From the NCBI GenBank assembly GCA_029287915.1, contig JARFQE010000123.1, positions 1-51,894 of the forward strand: a DNA stretch of 51,894 nucleotides. The letters are read 5' to 3'. The notes under the pieces were generated by a model. The model saw only the letters and a program-made list of their open reading frames with translations, was not told the origin of the DNA and searched no databases. Origin of the DNA: Arenicellales bacterium. GTDB taxonomy: Bacteria; Pseudomonadota; Gammaproteobacteria; BMS3Bbin11. Every line of letters starts with the position of its first letter. Position 1 is the first letter of the stretch. This document shows positions 7,659 to 27,111 of the stretch, piece by piece. A program made the position numbers and the translations under genes.

Positions 7659-7785
7659 ACCTGACTGCCACTAGCTGACGTTCTATCATACATTCCGAAA
7701 AGTAATTAAATTAATAAAAATGATGAATATATGTAATTTATAACCTGTGACATACTTATCTGCAACCGTAACAGGAGAAAACTCT
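7659..7785. promoter_or_regulatory. LysR–leuC divergent control region
   Basis: This AT-rich intergenic region should hold the divergent promoters. At 7703–7713 it contains the inverted repeat TAATT-A-AATTA, which could be part of a LysR-type box. I see no leucine-rich leader peptide and no attenuator, so control is more likely by the regulator than by attenuation. Confidence 0.35.
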
Positions 7786-9195
7786 ATGGCTGGTAAAACT
7801 TTGTACGACAAATTATGGGATAGCCATGTGGTGCGTCAGGAAGAAGATGGCACCACGCTAATTTATATTGATCGTCATCTGGTACATGAAGTGACATCTC
7901 CTCAGGCCTTTGAGGGTTTACGCCTTGCTGGACGTTCATTATGGCGTCCAGCGGCAAACCTGGCGACACCTGATCATAATGTACCGACCACTGAGCGTGA
8001 GAAAGGGATCGTAGATCCTGTTTCCCGGATACAGGTTGAGACGCTAGATCATAATTGTGTCGATTTTGGCATTACTGAATTTGGTATGGATGATCCACGC
8101 CAGGGCATCGTTCACGTTATCGGGCCAGAACAGGGCGCAACCTTGCCGGGAATGACAGTGGTGTGTGGTGATTCTCATACGTCGACGCATGGTGCGTTTG
8201 CTGCTTTGGCCATGGGCATCGGCACGTCTGAGGTTGAGCATGTACTGGCCACACAATGCCTGATTCAGAAGAAGGCGAAAAATATGCGAGTGACAGTAGA
8301 TGGTGCATTGTCTGCTGGTGTCACGGCCAAGGATGTCATCCTTGCCATCATTGAGAAAATCGGCACCGCAGGAGGCACCGGGCATACTATCGAATTTGCT
8401 GGTTCTGCCATTCGCGGGCTCACTATGGAAGGCCGAATGACGCTATGTAATATGGCTATCGAAGCGGGTGCCCGCGCTGGATTGGTGGCAGTTGATGAGC
8501 AGACCATCGAATACGTGCGCGGTCGGCCATATTCACCAGCAGAAAGTCATTTACCCCAGGCTGAAGCTTACTGGCGTGGGCTGAAATCTGATGCGGATGC
8601 CAGTTTTGACAGCGAAGTCCTGTTACGGGCAGAAGATATAAGACCCCAGGTGAGCTGGGGTACATCACCAGAAATGGTTGTTTCAATAGATGATGCGGTA
8701 CCGGACCCACAACAGGAAAGTGACCCGGTTAAACGGGAAGGCATGATCAATGCATTGAATTACATGGGACTGGAAGCTGGAATGGCTATCACTGATATCC
8801 AGCTGGACAAGATTTTTATTGGATCATGCACTAACTCACGTATTGAAGATATTCGGGCTGCTGCCGCAATTGTCCGCGGCCATAAGGTTGCTGGCACTAT
8901 CAGTCAGGCAATGGTGGTGCCCGGTTCAGGTCTGGTTAAAAAACAGGCAGAGGAAGAAGGGCTGGACACGGTGTTTATCGATGCCGGTTTTGAATGGCGA
9001 GACCCTGGTTGCTCGATGTGCCTGGCGATGAATGCAGACCGCCTTGAAGAAGGGGAGCGATGTGCTTCCACATCCAACCGAAATTTTGAGGGCCGTCAGG
9101 GGCGTGGTGGCAGGACGCACCTTGTATCACCGGTGCTGGCGGCAGCGGCAGCAATTGCGGGACATTTTATTGACCCGAACAGACTGGAGAACTGA
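7786..9195 (+). CDS. leuC: 3-isopropylmalate dehydratase large subunit
   Basis: LeuC is the 4Fe-4S subunit of isopropylmalate isomerase, which converts 2- to 3-isopropylmalate in leucine synthesis. The protein is 469 residues, normal for the family. Cluster ligands are visible at C348 (FIGSCTNSR) and C409/C412 ([11 protein letters not shown]), and HNVPTT and [15 protein letters not shown] are present. I start it at ATG 7786 because AGGAG lies 8 bases upstream and [16 protein letters not shown] is the family N-terminus; the frame is open further back to 7747. leuD follows after one base, so the subunits are translated together. Confidence 0.97.
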
Positions 9196-23046: not shown

Positions 23047-24552
23047 ATGTGTGGGATAGTCGGGATTTTTTCCCAGGGAAGTGTCAATCAACCTTTGTAT
23101 GATGGGCTGACTGTACTGCAGCACCGTGGTCAGGATGCTGCCGGGATAGTCACCAGTGATGGTCACCGTCTTTACATGCGTAAAGATAATGGACTGGTGC
23201 GCGATGTTTTTCACACGCGGCATATGCTTGGACTTGAAGGTAATATGGGTATCGGGCATGTCAGATATCCTACTGCTGGATGTGACTCGCGTTCAGAGGC
23301 GCAGCCCTTCTATGTTAATTCACCCTTTGGTGTCGCTCTGGGCCATAATGGCAACCTGACTAATGCCATGGAGCTACAGAATGAGTTGTTCAGGGATGAT
23401 CTGCGTCATCTTAATACCAACTCTGATTCTGAAGTGCTACTGAATGTTTTTGCCCATGAATTGCACCAGGCGACAACTCTGCAACCGGGGCCACAGGAAA
23501 TTTTCGAAGCAGTATCTGCTGTTCACAAGCGAGTCAGAGGTGCCTACGCGGTTGTTGCACTGATTGTCGGGCAGGGGATACTGGCATTTCGTGATCCATA
23601 CGGAATTCGCCCTCTTATCTATGGTTGTCGTAATTCAGCAAGGGGTCCTGAGCATATGGTTGCATCTGAAAGTGTTGCCCTTGATGTTCTGGGCTATGAG
23701 GTAGTTCGTGATGTAAAGCCGGGGGAAGCTATCTTTATTGATATGCAGGGGATTATTCATCACCAGCAATGTGCTGAATATACTCAAACCTCACCCTGTA
23801 TTTTTGAGTTTGTCTACATGTCACGTCCCGACACCTTGATGGATGGTATATCGGTACATAAAACACGGCTTCGTACCGGTGTTTACCTCGGCAAGAAGAT
23901 CAAACGAGAGTGGGCCGATACAAAGATTGACGTAGTAATCCCTATACCGGATACCAGCAGGACATCAGCGATCCAGCTAGCGAAGCAGTTGAAAGTGACC
24001 TACAGAGAGGGGTTTATCAAAAACCGTTACATTGGCAGAACTTTTATAATGCCGGGCCAGGAAGCGCGTAAACGTTCGGTCAGAAATAAGCTGAACGCGA
24101 TAGATCTCGAATTCAAGGGCAAGAATGTCCTACTTGTCGATGACTCGATAGTGCGAGGTACGACTTCAGGCCAGATAATAAAAATGGCACGGGAAGCCGG
24201 TGCGAAACGGGTCTATTTTGCCTCCGCAGCACCACCCGTTAGATATCCAAATGTTTATGGCATTGATATGCCTTCGCCATCAGAACTGGTTGCTCATAAT
24301 CGAAATGCACAACAGATATGCAACAAGATTGGTGCAGACAAGCTCATCTATCTTGATCTGGAAGATTTAATCAAGGCCGCTCATAAGGGGAACAAGGAGA
24401 TCACACAGTTTGATACTTCATGTTTCAATGGTGAATATATAACCGGTGATATAGACGATAATTATCTTGAGATGATTAATGAGCTACGTAATGATACAGC
24501 CCGTACCAAAGTAAATAATACTAGCCAGACAGAGTTAAGTTTTAGCGATTGA
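23047..24552 (+). CDS. purF: Amidophosphoribosyltransferase
   Basis: PurF catalyses the first committed step of purine synthesis, making phosphoribosylamine from PRPP and glutamine. The 501-residue enzyme starts MCGIVGIF; the Cys after the initiator Met is the glutaminase nucleophile and fixes the start. The glutamine-binding GHVRYPTAG and the PRPP-binding [14 protein letters not shown] are present. A GAGG lies about 12 bases upstream. metZ begins one base after the stop. Confidence 0.97.
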
Positions 24553-24553
24553 A

Positions 24554-25753
24554 ATGCAAGACAACGATGATGAAAGGTTTTCAGGCAGCAAGCTGGCAAC
24601 TCGTGCGGTACGTGCGGGTCAGGTTCGTACCACCGAAGGTGAACATGCAGAACCAATATTTCTGACCTCAAGTTATGTATTCAATAGTGCTGCAGATGCC
24701 GCAGCAAGATTTTCTGGCGAACAGGCTGGTAATATATATACTCGTTTCACCAATCCAACAGTTCGTACTTTTGAAGAACGTCTAGCCGCAATGGAAGAAG
24801 GGGAATGCTGCGTTGCCACGGCAACCGGCATGAGTGCAATCCTGGCCTGCTGTATGGGTCTGCTGGCAGCTGGCGATCATGTTGTTGCAGGGCGTGACCT
24901 GTTTGGTTCAACCATCATTCTTTTCAATAACATACTGACAAAGTTTGGTTTAACTTTTACCTACGTTGATTCAGCGGATCTGACGCAATGGGAAGATGCG
25001 ATCCAGGCCAATACAAAAATGCTGTTTCTGGAAACCCCGTCAAATCCGCTGTGTAATGTCTCTGATATTCGTGCAGTGGCAAAAATAGCACATGACAACT
25101 CTGCATTACTCGTGGTTGACAATACTTACTGTACACCCGTGCTACAGCAACCACTAAAGCTGGGCGCGGATGTGGTCGTCCATTCTTCGACGAAATATAT
25201 AGATGGCCAGGGCAGAACCATGGGTGGTGCAGTTGTGGGTGATAAAAAGCATGTGGGTGAGGATGTGTTCGGTTTTCTTCGTAGTGCTGGGCCATCATTA
25301 AGCCCATTCAATGCGTGGGTACAGTTAAAAGGACTGGAGACGCTGTCAATTAGAATGAAAGCACATAGCCAGTATGCACTGGAGATGGCAGGCTGGCTTG
25401 AGACACACCCTTCTGTAGAACGCGTTTATTACCCTGATCTGCCTTCTCATCCTCAGCATGATCTTGCTCAGCATCAACAAAATTCGGCAGGAGGGGTAAT
25501 TGCCTTTCTGGTGCAAGGGGGACAGGATCAGGCCTGGTCAGTGATCGATAGTACTGAACTGTTTTCTATCACTGCAAATCTTGGAGATGCAAAGTCGACC
25601 ATAACCCACCCCGCAACAACCACACATGGACGACTGACAGTCGAACAGCGTGAAGAAATGGGTGTGCTTGATAACCTGCTTAGGATCTCGATTGGCCTGG
25701 AAGATGTTGATGACCTTAAAAAGGATCTTCAACGTGGGCTTGACCGAATCTGA
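24554..25753 (+). CDS. metZ: O-succinylhomoserine sulfhydrylase
   Basis: MetZ makes homocysteine directly from O-succinylhomoserine and sulfide using PLP. The 399-residue Cys/Met-metabolism enzyme has TSSYVFNSAADAAARF, IYTRFTNPTV, the PLP lysine K214 in HSSTKYIDGQGR and the C-terminal SLGDAK-like region ANLGDAKSTITHPATTTH. The purF–metZ pairing is typical of Pseudomonas-like genomes and supports MetZ over MetB or MetC. Confidence 0.93.
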   Translation: MQDNDDERFSGSKLATRAVRAGQVRTTEGEHAEPIFLTSSYVFNSAADAAARFSGEQAGNIYTRFTNPTVRTFEERLAAMEEGECCVATATGMSAILACCMGLLAAGDHVVAGRDLFGSTIILFNNILTKFGLTFTYVDSADLTQWEDAIQANTKMLFLETPSNPLCNVSDIRAVAKIAHDNSALLVVDNTYCTPVLQQPLKLGADVVVHSSTKYIDGQGRTMGGAVVGDKKHVGEDVFGFLRSAGPSLSPFNAWVQLKGLETLSIRMKAHSQYALEMAGWLETHPSVERVYYPDLPSHPQHDLAQHQQNSAGGVIAFLVQGGQDQAWSVIDSTELFSITANLGDAKSTITHPATTTHGRLTVEQREEMGVLDNLLRISIGLEDVDDLKKDLQRGLDRI

Positions 25754-25767
25754 ATCAGGTTAAAAAA

Positions 25768-27111
25768 ATGATGGCTCTGGTAGAAAAGGCTAAACAATTC
25801 GCTACCACCGCACACAAGCGCATAAATCATCGGCGTAAATATAGTAATCAACCCTACACCGTCCACCTGTCATCAGTGGCAAACATTGTTGCAACAGTAA
25901 CCGATGATGAGGAAATGATTGCAGCTGCATGGTTACATGATGTCGTAGAGGATACGCCAGCAACACTTTACGATGTGGAAATGGAGTTTGGCAAGGGCGT
26001 CGCTGAACTTGTCGAAAACCTGACAGATATCAGCAAGCCCGGTGATGGCAACCGCCAAATACGAAAAGCGATTGACAGGCAGCATATCAGCAGAGCAAGT
26101 CGTCGTGCGAAAACGGTCAAGCTTGCTGATTTAATCGACAATGCAAATGATATCTGCAGGCATGACAGGGAATTTGCAGCGCTGTACCTGCAGGAAATGG
26201 GCGCATTACTCGAAGTGCTCGATGAAGGTGATACTGCACTTTATAAGCGGGCATGGAAAGCACATCATAAATGCACACAAAAACTGGCCAGGAGTAAAAT
26301 ATCGGAAGCTTCTCTGGCTGATGGTTATCCTCTTTTAAAGCCTGAACAGAATGGTAATCAGCATCTGTACAGACTTTTTTCTGAAGCTTTTACTGCGCAC
26401 CATATCGCCGAACCAGTTAGATCTTTCGATGCTTCTCGTCCCTGTAAGGAGGTACAGGCAATAATGGAACTTCATCAGCTCGACATCATCTGTTTGAGGG
26501 AGCAGGGCGTAATCATCGGTTATGCGCGTCATCAAGACCTGGTCGGGCACACATGCCGGGAAAATATGCGTGAATTCAGAGAGGGGCAGGTCGTATCCGG
26601 AGACAGCCCTTTTTCTGATATTATTCATGTGCTTACCCTGCAGCAGTATGGTTTTATCTCAGTTCTTGGAGAAATAGCAGGTGTCTTCTGCCGCGAAGAC
26701 ATCAATAAGCCGGTCGTCAGGATGTGGTTGTTTGGCATCATTACTTTTATTGAAATGGAAGTAATGAAGGTGATCGCCCGTTATTTCCCTGATGATTCCT
26801 GGCAGACGTCTATCTCTGAAGAAAGATTACGTCAGGCAAAAAGCTTGCGTGAAGAGCGAATACGTCGTGGACAACACTGTAATCTACTTGAATGTATACA
26901 GTTGTCTGATAAAGGAAAGATTATTATCAGTAATCAAGAGACGATGAAAATAATGGGCCTGGAGTCAAGAAGATCAGCAAAAAAAGTGATACGTGAACTG
27001 GAATCTCTACGAAACAATCTTGCACATGCTCAGGATATCGTGACTTACGACTGGGGGCAGATCGTCAGACTTACGCATCGCCTGGAAGATACATTGAATA
27101 GCAGGGCCTAG
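25768..27111 (+). CDS. HD alarmone-hydrolase-like protein with CBS and HEPN-like regions
   Basis: This 447-residue protein appears to be a three-part fusion. Residues about 1–180 match the HD hydrolase of the SpoT/MESH1 type: H33, H57-D58, E61-D62 and D121/N125 are all in place (QPYTVHLSSV, WLHDVVEDTPATL, TVKLADLIDN). No synthetase or TGS domain is present. Residues about 215–330 look like a CBS pair (IICLREQGVIIGYARHQDL, then FISVLGEIAGVFCREDI). Residues about 330–447 are helical and end with R415-N-x3-H420 (LRNNLAHAQDIV), the Rx4H signature of HEPN domains, many of which are RNases. It starts 14 bases after metZ. A role in (p)ppGpp-type nucleotide turnover or stress/defence is inferred; no activity is shown. 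The start may be either of two adjacent ATGs. Confidence 0.85.
   Translation: MMALVEKAKQFATTAHKRINHRRKYSNQPYTVHLSSVANIVATVTDDEEMIAAAWLHDVVEDTPATLYDVEMEFGKGVAELVENLTDISKPGDGNRQIRKAIDRQHISRASRRAKTVKLADLIDNANDICRHDREFAALYLQEMGALLEVLDEGDTALYKRAWKAHHKCTQKLARSKISEASLADGYPLLKPEQNGNQHLYRLFSEAFTAHHIAEPVRSFDASRPCKEVQAIMELHQLDIICLREQGVIIGYARHQDLVGHTCRENMREFREGQVVSGDSPFSDIIHVLTLQQYGFISVLGEIAGVFCREDINKPVVRMWLFGIITFIEMEVMKVIARYFPDDSWQTSISEERLRQAKSLREERIRRGQHCNLLECIQLSDKGKIIISNQETMKIMGLESRRSAKKVIRELESLRNNLAHAQDIVTYDWGQIVRLTHRLEDTLNSRA

What the first reader, a model, noticed from the sequence alone, without database searches (positions are those of the whole stretch)
25768..27111. Fusion of a MESH1/SpoT-type HD hydrolase with CBS and HEPN-like domains
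Seen: all HD-type residues expected of a (p)ppGpp-hydrolase fold (H33, HD57–58, ED61–62, D121, N125) with no synthetase part; a middle region with two CBS-like half-sites; and a C-terminal LRNNLAHAQD with R-N-x3-H spacing. Known: MESH1/SpoT HD domains hydrolyse alarmones; CBS pairs bind adenine nucleotides; HEPN domains with Rx4-6H are often RNases in toxin–antitoxin and phage defence. Inference: one protein could sense nucleotides through CBS, remove an alarmone and control an RNase. It sits just after purF–metZ, which are purine and methionine genes.
Basis: partly seen in the sequence, partly recalled or inferred. Interest (0 to 1): 0.72.

Follow-up and report, generated by a model that had tools for sequence, protein, structure and literature searches.

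The report
Alarmone-hydrolase, CBS sensor, HEPN RNase fusion
This gene encodes one protein that joins an enzyme predicted to destroy a stress nucleotide, a nucleotide sensor and a predicted RNA-cutting domain; many environmental bacteria carry relatives, and it looks like an RNA-cutting switch with a built-in signal eraser.

Summary
In detail: 25768-27111 (+) is an intact 447-aa gene. Residues 1-178 are a MESH1-type small alarmone hydrolase (predicted structure: Z 22.8 to human MESH1, rmsd 2.0 A over 166 residues), 204-313 a CBS pair, 314-447 a HEPN bundle (top structural matches AbiF, HEPN toxins, Csm6). In 78 aligned sequences every listed HD catalytic residue and R415/N416/H420 are invariant. 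The fusion is a recurrent family (79 other loci, mostly sulfur-metabolising Gammaproteobacteria). The fused HD domains form one clade, grouped with phage-encoded alarmone hydrolases and a few chromosomal ones, away from SpoT/RelA. The CBS-HEPN half has HD-less homologues beside a type I restriction gene and on haloarchaeal plasmids. The architecture is not new: a 2013 survey lists HEPN fused to CBS and HD, and a CBS-HEPN protein (DS-11) was shown in 2026 to block phage through both domains. New, as far as the held literature shows: the HD is an alarmone hydrolase related to phage enzymes. Most likely it is a nucleotide-gated RNase with an in-chain eraser of its signal, resembling Csx1-Crn2; coupling and substrate are inferred. 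The purF-metZ neighbourhood is lineage-local.

The parts
25768..27111 (+). Whole gene: HD-CBS-HEPN protein, 447 aa
   Evidence: ORF; 79 full-length or near-full-length relatives without stops; AF2 model pLDDT 90.5, pTM 0.85
25768..26301 (+). Residues 1-178: MESH1/SAH-type HD hydrolase domain
   Evidence: HD_4 1.7e-16; MESH1 3nqw 2.3e-16 by sequence; VIA Z 22.8, rmsd 2.0 A, 166 residues to human MESH1
25864..25866 (+). H33, metal ligand
   Evidence: 78/78 invariant
25936..25953 (+). H57 D58 ... E61 D62, metal ligands and catalytic ED pair
   Evidence: 78/78 invariant
26128..26142 (+). D121 ... N125, metal ligand and substrate-site residue
   Evidence: 78/78 invariant
26305..26352 (+). Residues 180-195: flexible linker between HD and CBS
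   Evidence: pLDDT below 50 only here
26377..26706 (+). Residues 204-313: CBS pair (two CBS motifs, one Bateman module)
   Evidence: Pfam CBS in 29/78 members; VIA Z 9.5, rmsd 3.3, 118 residues to 2yzi and Z 9.5, rmsd 2.6, 116 residues to CBSX2
26707..27108 (+). Residues 314-447: HEPN helical bundle, Abi2/Swt1-like
   Evidence: HEPN_Swt1 in 73/78 members; VIA rows 1-8 are all HEPN proteins: AbiF Z 8.4 (rmsd 3.5, 129 residues), HEPN toxins, Csm6 Z 6.8
26725..26727 (+). W320 in RMWLFG at the CBS-HEPN junction; Y in most HD-less CBS-HEPN homologues
   Evidence: 78/78 W; Y in L129 and in L131-L133, A in L130
27010..27027 (+). R415-N-N-L-A-H420, HEPN Rx4H RNase motif
   Evidence: R415, N416, H420 78/78 invariant
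24554..25753 (+). metZ-like gene upstream (context only)
   Evidence: ORF; adjacency kept only in close relatives
23047..24552 (+). purF (context only)
   Evidence: ORF; adjacency kept only in close relatives

Best explanation
The protein is a stand-alone, nucleotide-gated RNase with a built-in eraser. Shown here by sequence and predicted structure: an intact MESH1-type hydrolase, a CBS pair and a HEPN domain with its full Rx4H motif are kept together in one chain. Inferred: an adenine-type nucleotide that rises under stress or phage attack binds the CBS pair, the paired HEPN domains are switched on and cut RNA to slow the cell, and the HD domain removes the 3' (pyro)phosphate of that nucleotide or of a competing alarmone such as (p)ppApp or (p)ppGpp, so that the RNase stays off in healthy cells and shuts off again. 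It would work like the Csx1-Crn2 fusion of type III CRISPR, with CBS in place of CARF and an alarmone hydrolase in place of the ring nuclease.
For: Catalytic residues of HD and HEPN both invariant in 78/78 sequences, i.e. both enzymes are kept together. Structure: MESH1 Z 22.8, CBS pair Z 9.5, HEPN top rows AbiF, HEPN toxins, Csm6. HD-less CBS-HEPN homologues lie beside an HsdM-like gene (L130) and an integrase (L129) and on haloarchaeal plasmids. CBS-HEPN protein DS-11 stops phage; both its CBS Y157 and its HEPN catalytic residues are needed (PMC13092281). The fused HD domains are one clade (100/98; 95/97 after long rows were dropped) grouped with phage SAHs and five chromosomal SAHs, apart from SpoT/RelA. 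Patchy within the genus: intact, broken and cleanly absent, as for an accessory stress or defence gene. SAHs prefer adenine alarmones in one tested case (PMC9765508). Precedent of effector and eraser in one chain, the eraser being a host homologue of a phage anti-CRISPR enzyme (PMC7293037).
Against: No biochemical data. The HD-fused genes are not in defence islands: neighbours are varied housekeeping genes, and PADLOC hits among them are generic families such as PLD, OmpA/MotB and patatin. The CBS ligand is unknown, and nothing shows that the HD substrate and the CBS ligand are the same molecule. The second CBS motif's Asp (D311) is kept in only 54 of 78. The relation to DS-11 itself was not tested, because its sequence is not at hand.
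Confidence: 0.42

Rival explanations
1. A regulated alarmone hydrolase. The HD domain is the output and tunes (p)ppGpp/(p)ppApp or NADPH; the CBS pair senses energy charge, and HEPN serves as dimerisation or RNA-binding part or as a minor RNase.
For: HD is the best-matching domain and highly conserved; a CBS protein, DarB, binds the Rel enzyme of B. subtilis (PDB 8acu, listed); housekeeping neighbourhoods; orphan SAHs tune NADPH and alarmones (PMC9765508).
Against: Strict conservation of R415/N416/H420 in 78/78 points to catalysis by HEPN; the genome already has two long RSHs and another SAH; HD-less CBS-HEPN proteins exist on their own.
Confidence: 0.25
2. A sulfur-linked version of the switch: the HD domain dephosphorylates PAPS or PAP, the CBS pair senses an adenylyl nucleotide of sulfur assimilation or oxidation, and HEPN cuts RNA when it builds up.
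For: Human MESH1 is reported as a PAPS phosphatase (cited in PMC12934728) and crystallised with PAPS (9chy). Carriers are mostly sulfur oxidisers or sulfur symbionts by title; genomes with the full gene have aprA over cut-off in 9 of 14 against 94 of 355 without (Fisher p = 0.004).
Against: The association is confounded by kinship and by few independent lineages; three full-length carriers show no strong aprA match (G184, G297, G307); Accumulibacter and Methylothermaceae also carry the gene; the metZ neighbour is lineage-local.
Confidence: 0.12
3. The HEPN part is no longer an RNase and works as an RNA-binding or dimer scaffold, as proposed for eukaryotic Swt1.
For: HEPN_Swt1 is a family with inactive members (PMC3710099); sequence scores for HEPN are modest.
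Against: R, N and H of the motif are invariant, unlike in inactive members.
Confidence: 0.12
4. Artefact: two genes joined by assembly or a chance motif.
For: The window genome is a draft in 139 contigs.
Against: 79 further loci from many projects, including strains DSM 6210, DSM 11080, DSM 19078 and DSM 21303, have the same fusion without stops.
Confidence: 0.01

Closest known systems
HEPN fused to CBS and HD (alr3009 of Anabaena; gi 118580987 of Pelobacter propionicus), Anantharaman et al. 2013 (PMC3710099)
   Same: Same three domains; same HEPN family (Abi2/Swt1), called active; same proposal that CBS ligands regulate RNA stability
   Different: That survey calls the HD only a phosphohydrolase and mentions neither SpoT nor ppGpp; whether its HD is of the MESH1 type was not tested here, since those sequences were not fetched
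DS-11, CBS-HEPN one-protein antiphage system (DefensePredictor, PMC13092281)
   Same: CBS and HEPN in one chain; both parts needed for defence
   Different: Described there with CBS and HEPN only, no HD; direct homology to the window protein not tested, sequence not at hand
Small alarmone hydrolases (MESH1, RelH, PaSAH) and phage SAHs
   Same: Fold and all catalytic residues; phage SAHs up to 53% identical
   Different: Those are single-domain; here the hydrolase is fused to a sensor and an RNase
Csx1-Crn2 of type III CRISPR (PMC7293037)
   Same: Sensor plus HEPN RNase plus enzyme that destroys a nucleotide messenger in one chain; the eraser has phage relatives
   Different: CARF and ring nuclease instead of CBS and HD; no cyclase or CRISPR seen here; not homologous outside HEPN
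PADLOC PDC-M34B candidate defence family
   Same: Weak match over the HEPN part, E 0.00019 in the window, 22 of 78 members at E <= 0.01
   Different: No system described; match is weak and partial

Membership tests
Small alarmone hydrolase (MESH1/SAH) HD domain | HD metal ligands H33, H57, D58, D121 and catalytic E61, D62 plus N125 | tested here: met
   78/78 invariant
Small alarmone hydrolase (MESH1/SAH) HD domain | SAH fold and no synthetase domain | tested here: met
   Z 22.8 to MESH1; no RelA_SpoT match in the protein
Small alarmone hydrolase (MESH1/SAH) HD domain | Hydrolysis of a 3'-pyrophosphate alarmone | not testable with these tools
   needs enzyme assay
CBS-pair proteins | Two CBS motifs forming a Bateman module | tested here: met
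   AF2 model and VIA Z 9.5 over 116-118 residues; Pfam CBS in 29/78 members, not in the window protein itself
CBS-pair proteins | Binding of an adenosyl ligand | not testable with these tools
   ligand unknown; D311 conserved in 54/78
HEPN superfamily (Abi2/Swt1 branch) | Rx4-6H motif with polar residue after R | tested here: met
   R415 N416 H420 78/78
HEPN superfamily (Abi2/Swt1 branch) | HEPN helical fold | tested here: met
   VIA rows 1-8 all HEPN proteins, AbiF Z 8.4 rmsd 3.5 over 129 residues; Foldseek alone gave no significant match; HEPN_Swt1 73/78
HEPN superfamily (Abi2/Swt1 branch) | Dimer and RNase activity | not testable with these tools
   needs assay or complex prediction
CBS-HEPN antiphage system (DS-11 type) | Sequence homology to DS-11 | not tested
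CBS-HEPN antiphage system (DS-11 type) | Placement among defence genes or mobile elements | tested here: not met
   HD-fused loci lie among housekeeping genes; HD-less homologues do lie near HsdM, integrase or on plasmids
HEPN/MNT or other toxin-antitoxin pair | Conserved adjacent antitoxin gene | tested here: not met
   no conserved neighbour in 69 loci

The most novel reading that the evidence does not exclude
A new class of self-limiting immune or stress effector outside CRISPR: the CBS pair is switched on by a phosphorylated adenine alarmone, the HEPN RNase arrests the cell, and the fused HD erases the alarmone; phages carry free copies of the same hydrolase as counter-defence, and the host took up one of them as the built-in off switch.
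Probability: 0.2. Interest if true: 0.85.

Novelty: new member of a known kind. Interest (0 to 1): 0.58.

Why it matters
If the reading is right, alarmone hydrolases link stringent-response-type nucleotides to an RNase effector in one chain, in many environmental bacteria. It would give a direct way to find the unknown activator of CBS-HEPN defence proteins (what the HD destroys is the first candidate), and would give phage-encoded alarmone hydrolases, found in 169 phage records here, a testable counter-defence role.

Tried and rejected
Viral contigs: one relative only, a phage SAH without CBS-HEPN (L005). Order-level search gave the same 8 genomes as the family-level one. Foldseek with the HEPN model alone found nothing significant; only the VIA second look did. 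PDB sequence search with the HEPN profile found nothing relevant. Phage collection searched with the CBS-HEPN part: no match. Toxin-antitoxin operon rejected: no conserved neighbour. purF-metZ functional link rejected: lineage-local. Defence-island placement of the HD-fused gene not supported. Literature searches for HEPN with Mesh1, or HEPN with CBS and ppGpp, returned nothing, within an open-licence library only. The sister relation of fused HDs to phage SAHs was strong with all rows (96/99), but the order within the fused-phage-SAH group was unresolved once long rows were dropped, so only the wider grouping is claimed (92/95).

Full report
What is there. The gene at 25768-27111 (+) encodes 447 aa, starts 14 bases after metZ and has an ordinary start codon. 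Pfam sees HD_4 at 1.7e-16 and a sub-threshold HEPN_Swt1 (0.0018, 19 bits against a cut-off of 27.5); CBS is not seen in the single sequence. NCBIfam sees only the hydrolase end of RelA/SpoT. The own genome also holds two long RelA/SpoT proteins and a second small HD_4 protein, and no stand-alone synthetase.

It is a family. A search of 369 gammaproteobacterial genomes with the C-terminal 303 residues found the same protein in about a dozen genera. A scan of the GTDB species genomes gave 540 related stretches of all kinds, of which the best 80 were kept; 79 of these were read through and none has a stop. The 80 were ranked by similarity to the query, so the count of true three-domain proteins is at least about 79 and not known above that. 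By record title the carriers are mostly Chromatiaceae, Sedimenticola, Thiodiazotropha, tubeworm symbionts, Ectothiorhodospiraceae and Acidiferrobacteraceae, with Accumulibacter and Propionivibrio, three Nitrospirota and one Desulfosarcina.

Conservation. In 78 aligned sequences H33, H57, D58, E61, D62, D121, N125, D128, R415, N416 and H420 never vary; R23 never varies and K24 varies once. The scan pattern contained H57, D58 and E61, so those three are partly chosen for. The 14-sequence set, found through the C-terminal part only, shows the same invariance, so it is not an effect of the search. The stretch RMWLFG at the start of the HEPN domain, E329, W345, R353, C376, D381-K382 and W429 are also fixed or nearly so.

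Structure. AlphaFold2 on the 78-row alignment gives pLDDT 90.5 and pTM 0.85, with one floppy linker at 180-195. Residues 1-172 match human MESH1 at Z 22.8, rmsd 2.0 A, 166 residues; the next rows are other small alarmone hydrolases, then Rel/SpoT. Residues 204-325 match CBS pairs at Z about 9.5. The C-terminal domain folded alone (pLDDT 86.9) has as its first eight structural rows only HEPN proteins: AbiF bound to ncRNA (Z 8.4, rmsd 3.5, 129 residues), HEPN toxins of HEPN-MNT pairs, and Csm6 (Z 6.8). Z values of this size are weak for helical bundles taken singly; the run of eight HEPN rows together with the invariant motif and HEPN_Swt1 in 73 of 78 members makes the assignment sound.

Neighbourhood. 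No gene is a regular neighbour: in 69 loci the commonest cluster after the gene itself occurs in 8, and that one belongs largely to related sulfur symbionts. Pfam and PADLOC scans of 78 flanking proteins show porins, kinases, amino-acid enzymes, and no defence set beyond generic families. The purF-metZ context is confined to the window's genus and one close relative. Within that genus the gene is intact in three genomes, disrupted by a frame-breaking internal deletion in G001 (residues 131 to 360 missing) and cleanly absent in G002, where metZ is followed after about 100 bases by the next conserved stretch. So it is dispensable.

Relatives without HD. CBS-HEPN proteins without HD are found in G279 and G567 (L129, L130) and on haloarchaeal plasmids. 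L130 lies directly before an HsdM-like gene and L129 near an integrase. The haloarchaeal ones keep the RNDxAH motif and a divergent small gene of about 118 aa.

Origin of the HD part. In the sampled class, hits at E <= 1e-20 to the HD domain are the fused family (53% identity and up) and only two others at 41-44%. In a wider phylum sample five free-standing enzymes of about 198 aa from one family reach 44-50%. Phage SAHs reach 53% over 90% of the domain, with hits in 169 phage records, and plasmid ones similar values in 271 records. A tree puts the 20 sampled fused HDs in one clade (100/98), grouped with seven phage SAHs (96/99) and then with those five chromosomal SAHs, far from RelA/SpoT and from the genome's other SAH. 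After dropping long rows the fused clade holds (95/97) and the wider group has 92/95, but the order inside it is open. Thus one fusion event within a subfamily shared with phages is the simplest reading.

What is known. The 2013 HEPN survey lists CBS and HD fusions to Swt1-like HEPN as active and proposes nucleotide control of RNA stability (PMC3710099). The 2026 DefensePredictor paper shows that a CBS-HEPN protein, DS-11, protects against phage and needs Y157 of CBS and the HEPN catalytic residues; its ligand is unknown (PMC13092281). MESH1 and bacterial SAHs act on (p)ppGpp, (p)ppApp and NADPH (PMC9765508), and MESH1 on PAPS (cited in PMC12934728). Csx1-Crn2 is the model of an effector fused to the eraser of its messenger, the eraser being a host relative of a phage anti-CRISPR enzyme (PMC7293037). 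No held paper joins HEPN with Mesh1, or with CBS and ppGpp.

Mechanism. Shown: three intact domains kept together, one fusion origin for the sampled HDs, separate existence of CBS-HEPN, phage kin of the HD. Inferred: CBS ligand turns on HEPN (by analogy with DS-11), HD removes the ligand or a related alarmone (by analogy with Csx1-Crn2 and from SAH chemistry). I give the whole chain 0.42, because domain identities are near certain and coupling is untested. A hydrolase-first reading gets 0.25 and a sulfur-nucleotide version 0.12. The association with aprA (9 of 14 against 94 of 355, Fisher p = 0.004) is confounded by kinship and is only a lead.

Verdict. The value lies in the identity of the HD, its phage kin, and a sharp test: an HD-dead mutant should be toxic through HEPN.

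Noticed in passing
L131-L134, L146 (haloarchaeal plasmids, e.g. L132:7302-7658 and 7770-8603): CBS-HEPN gene with a conserved divergent gene of about 118 aa next to it in the four loci translated, and an equal-length gene at the same place in L146; a possible antitoxin or regulator.
   Followed up: partly
L130 (G567:C12:313230-313937): HD-less CBS-HEPN gene directly upstream of an HsdM-like type I methyltransferase gene.
   Followed up: partly
L011, L014 (G001:C4:88274-88940): Same gene broken by a frame-shifting internal deletion in a relative of the same genus; G002 has a clean empty site after metZ.
   Followed up: yes
L166-L171, L005 and phage records: Phages and phage-plasmids carry free-standing small alarmone hydrolases up to 53% identical to this HD domain; in Komagataeibacter phage phiKM1 it follows a hicA-hicB-like pair.
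   Followed up: partly
L004 (G000:C55:39713-40096): The window's genome has a second small HD_4 hydrolase, from a different SAH branch.
   Followed up: no
genomes: Carriers are enriched for aprA (9/14 against 94/355), i.e. sulfur oxidisers; confounded by kinship.
   Followed up: partly
L039 (G269:C20:24665-25354): A stretch (IAESLFSFDI...VASIR) is repeated in the predicted protein, near the CBS part and again near the C-terminus; likely an assembly artefact or a recombined repeat.
   Followed up: no
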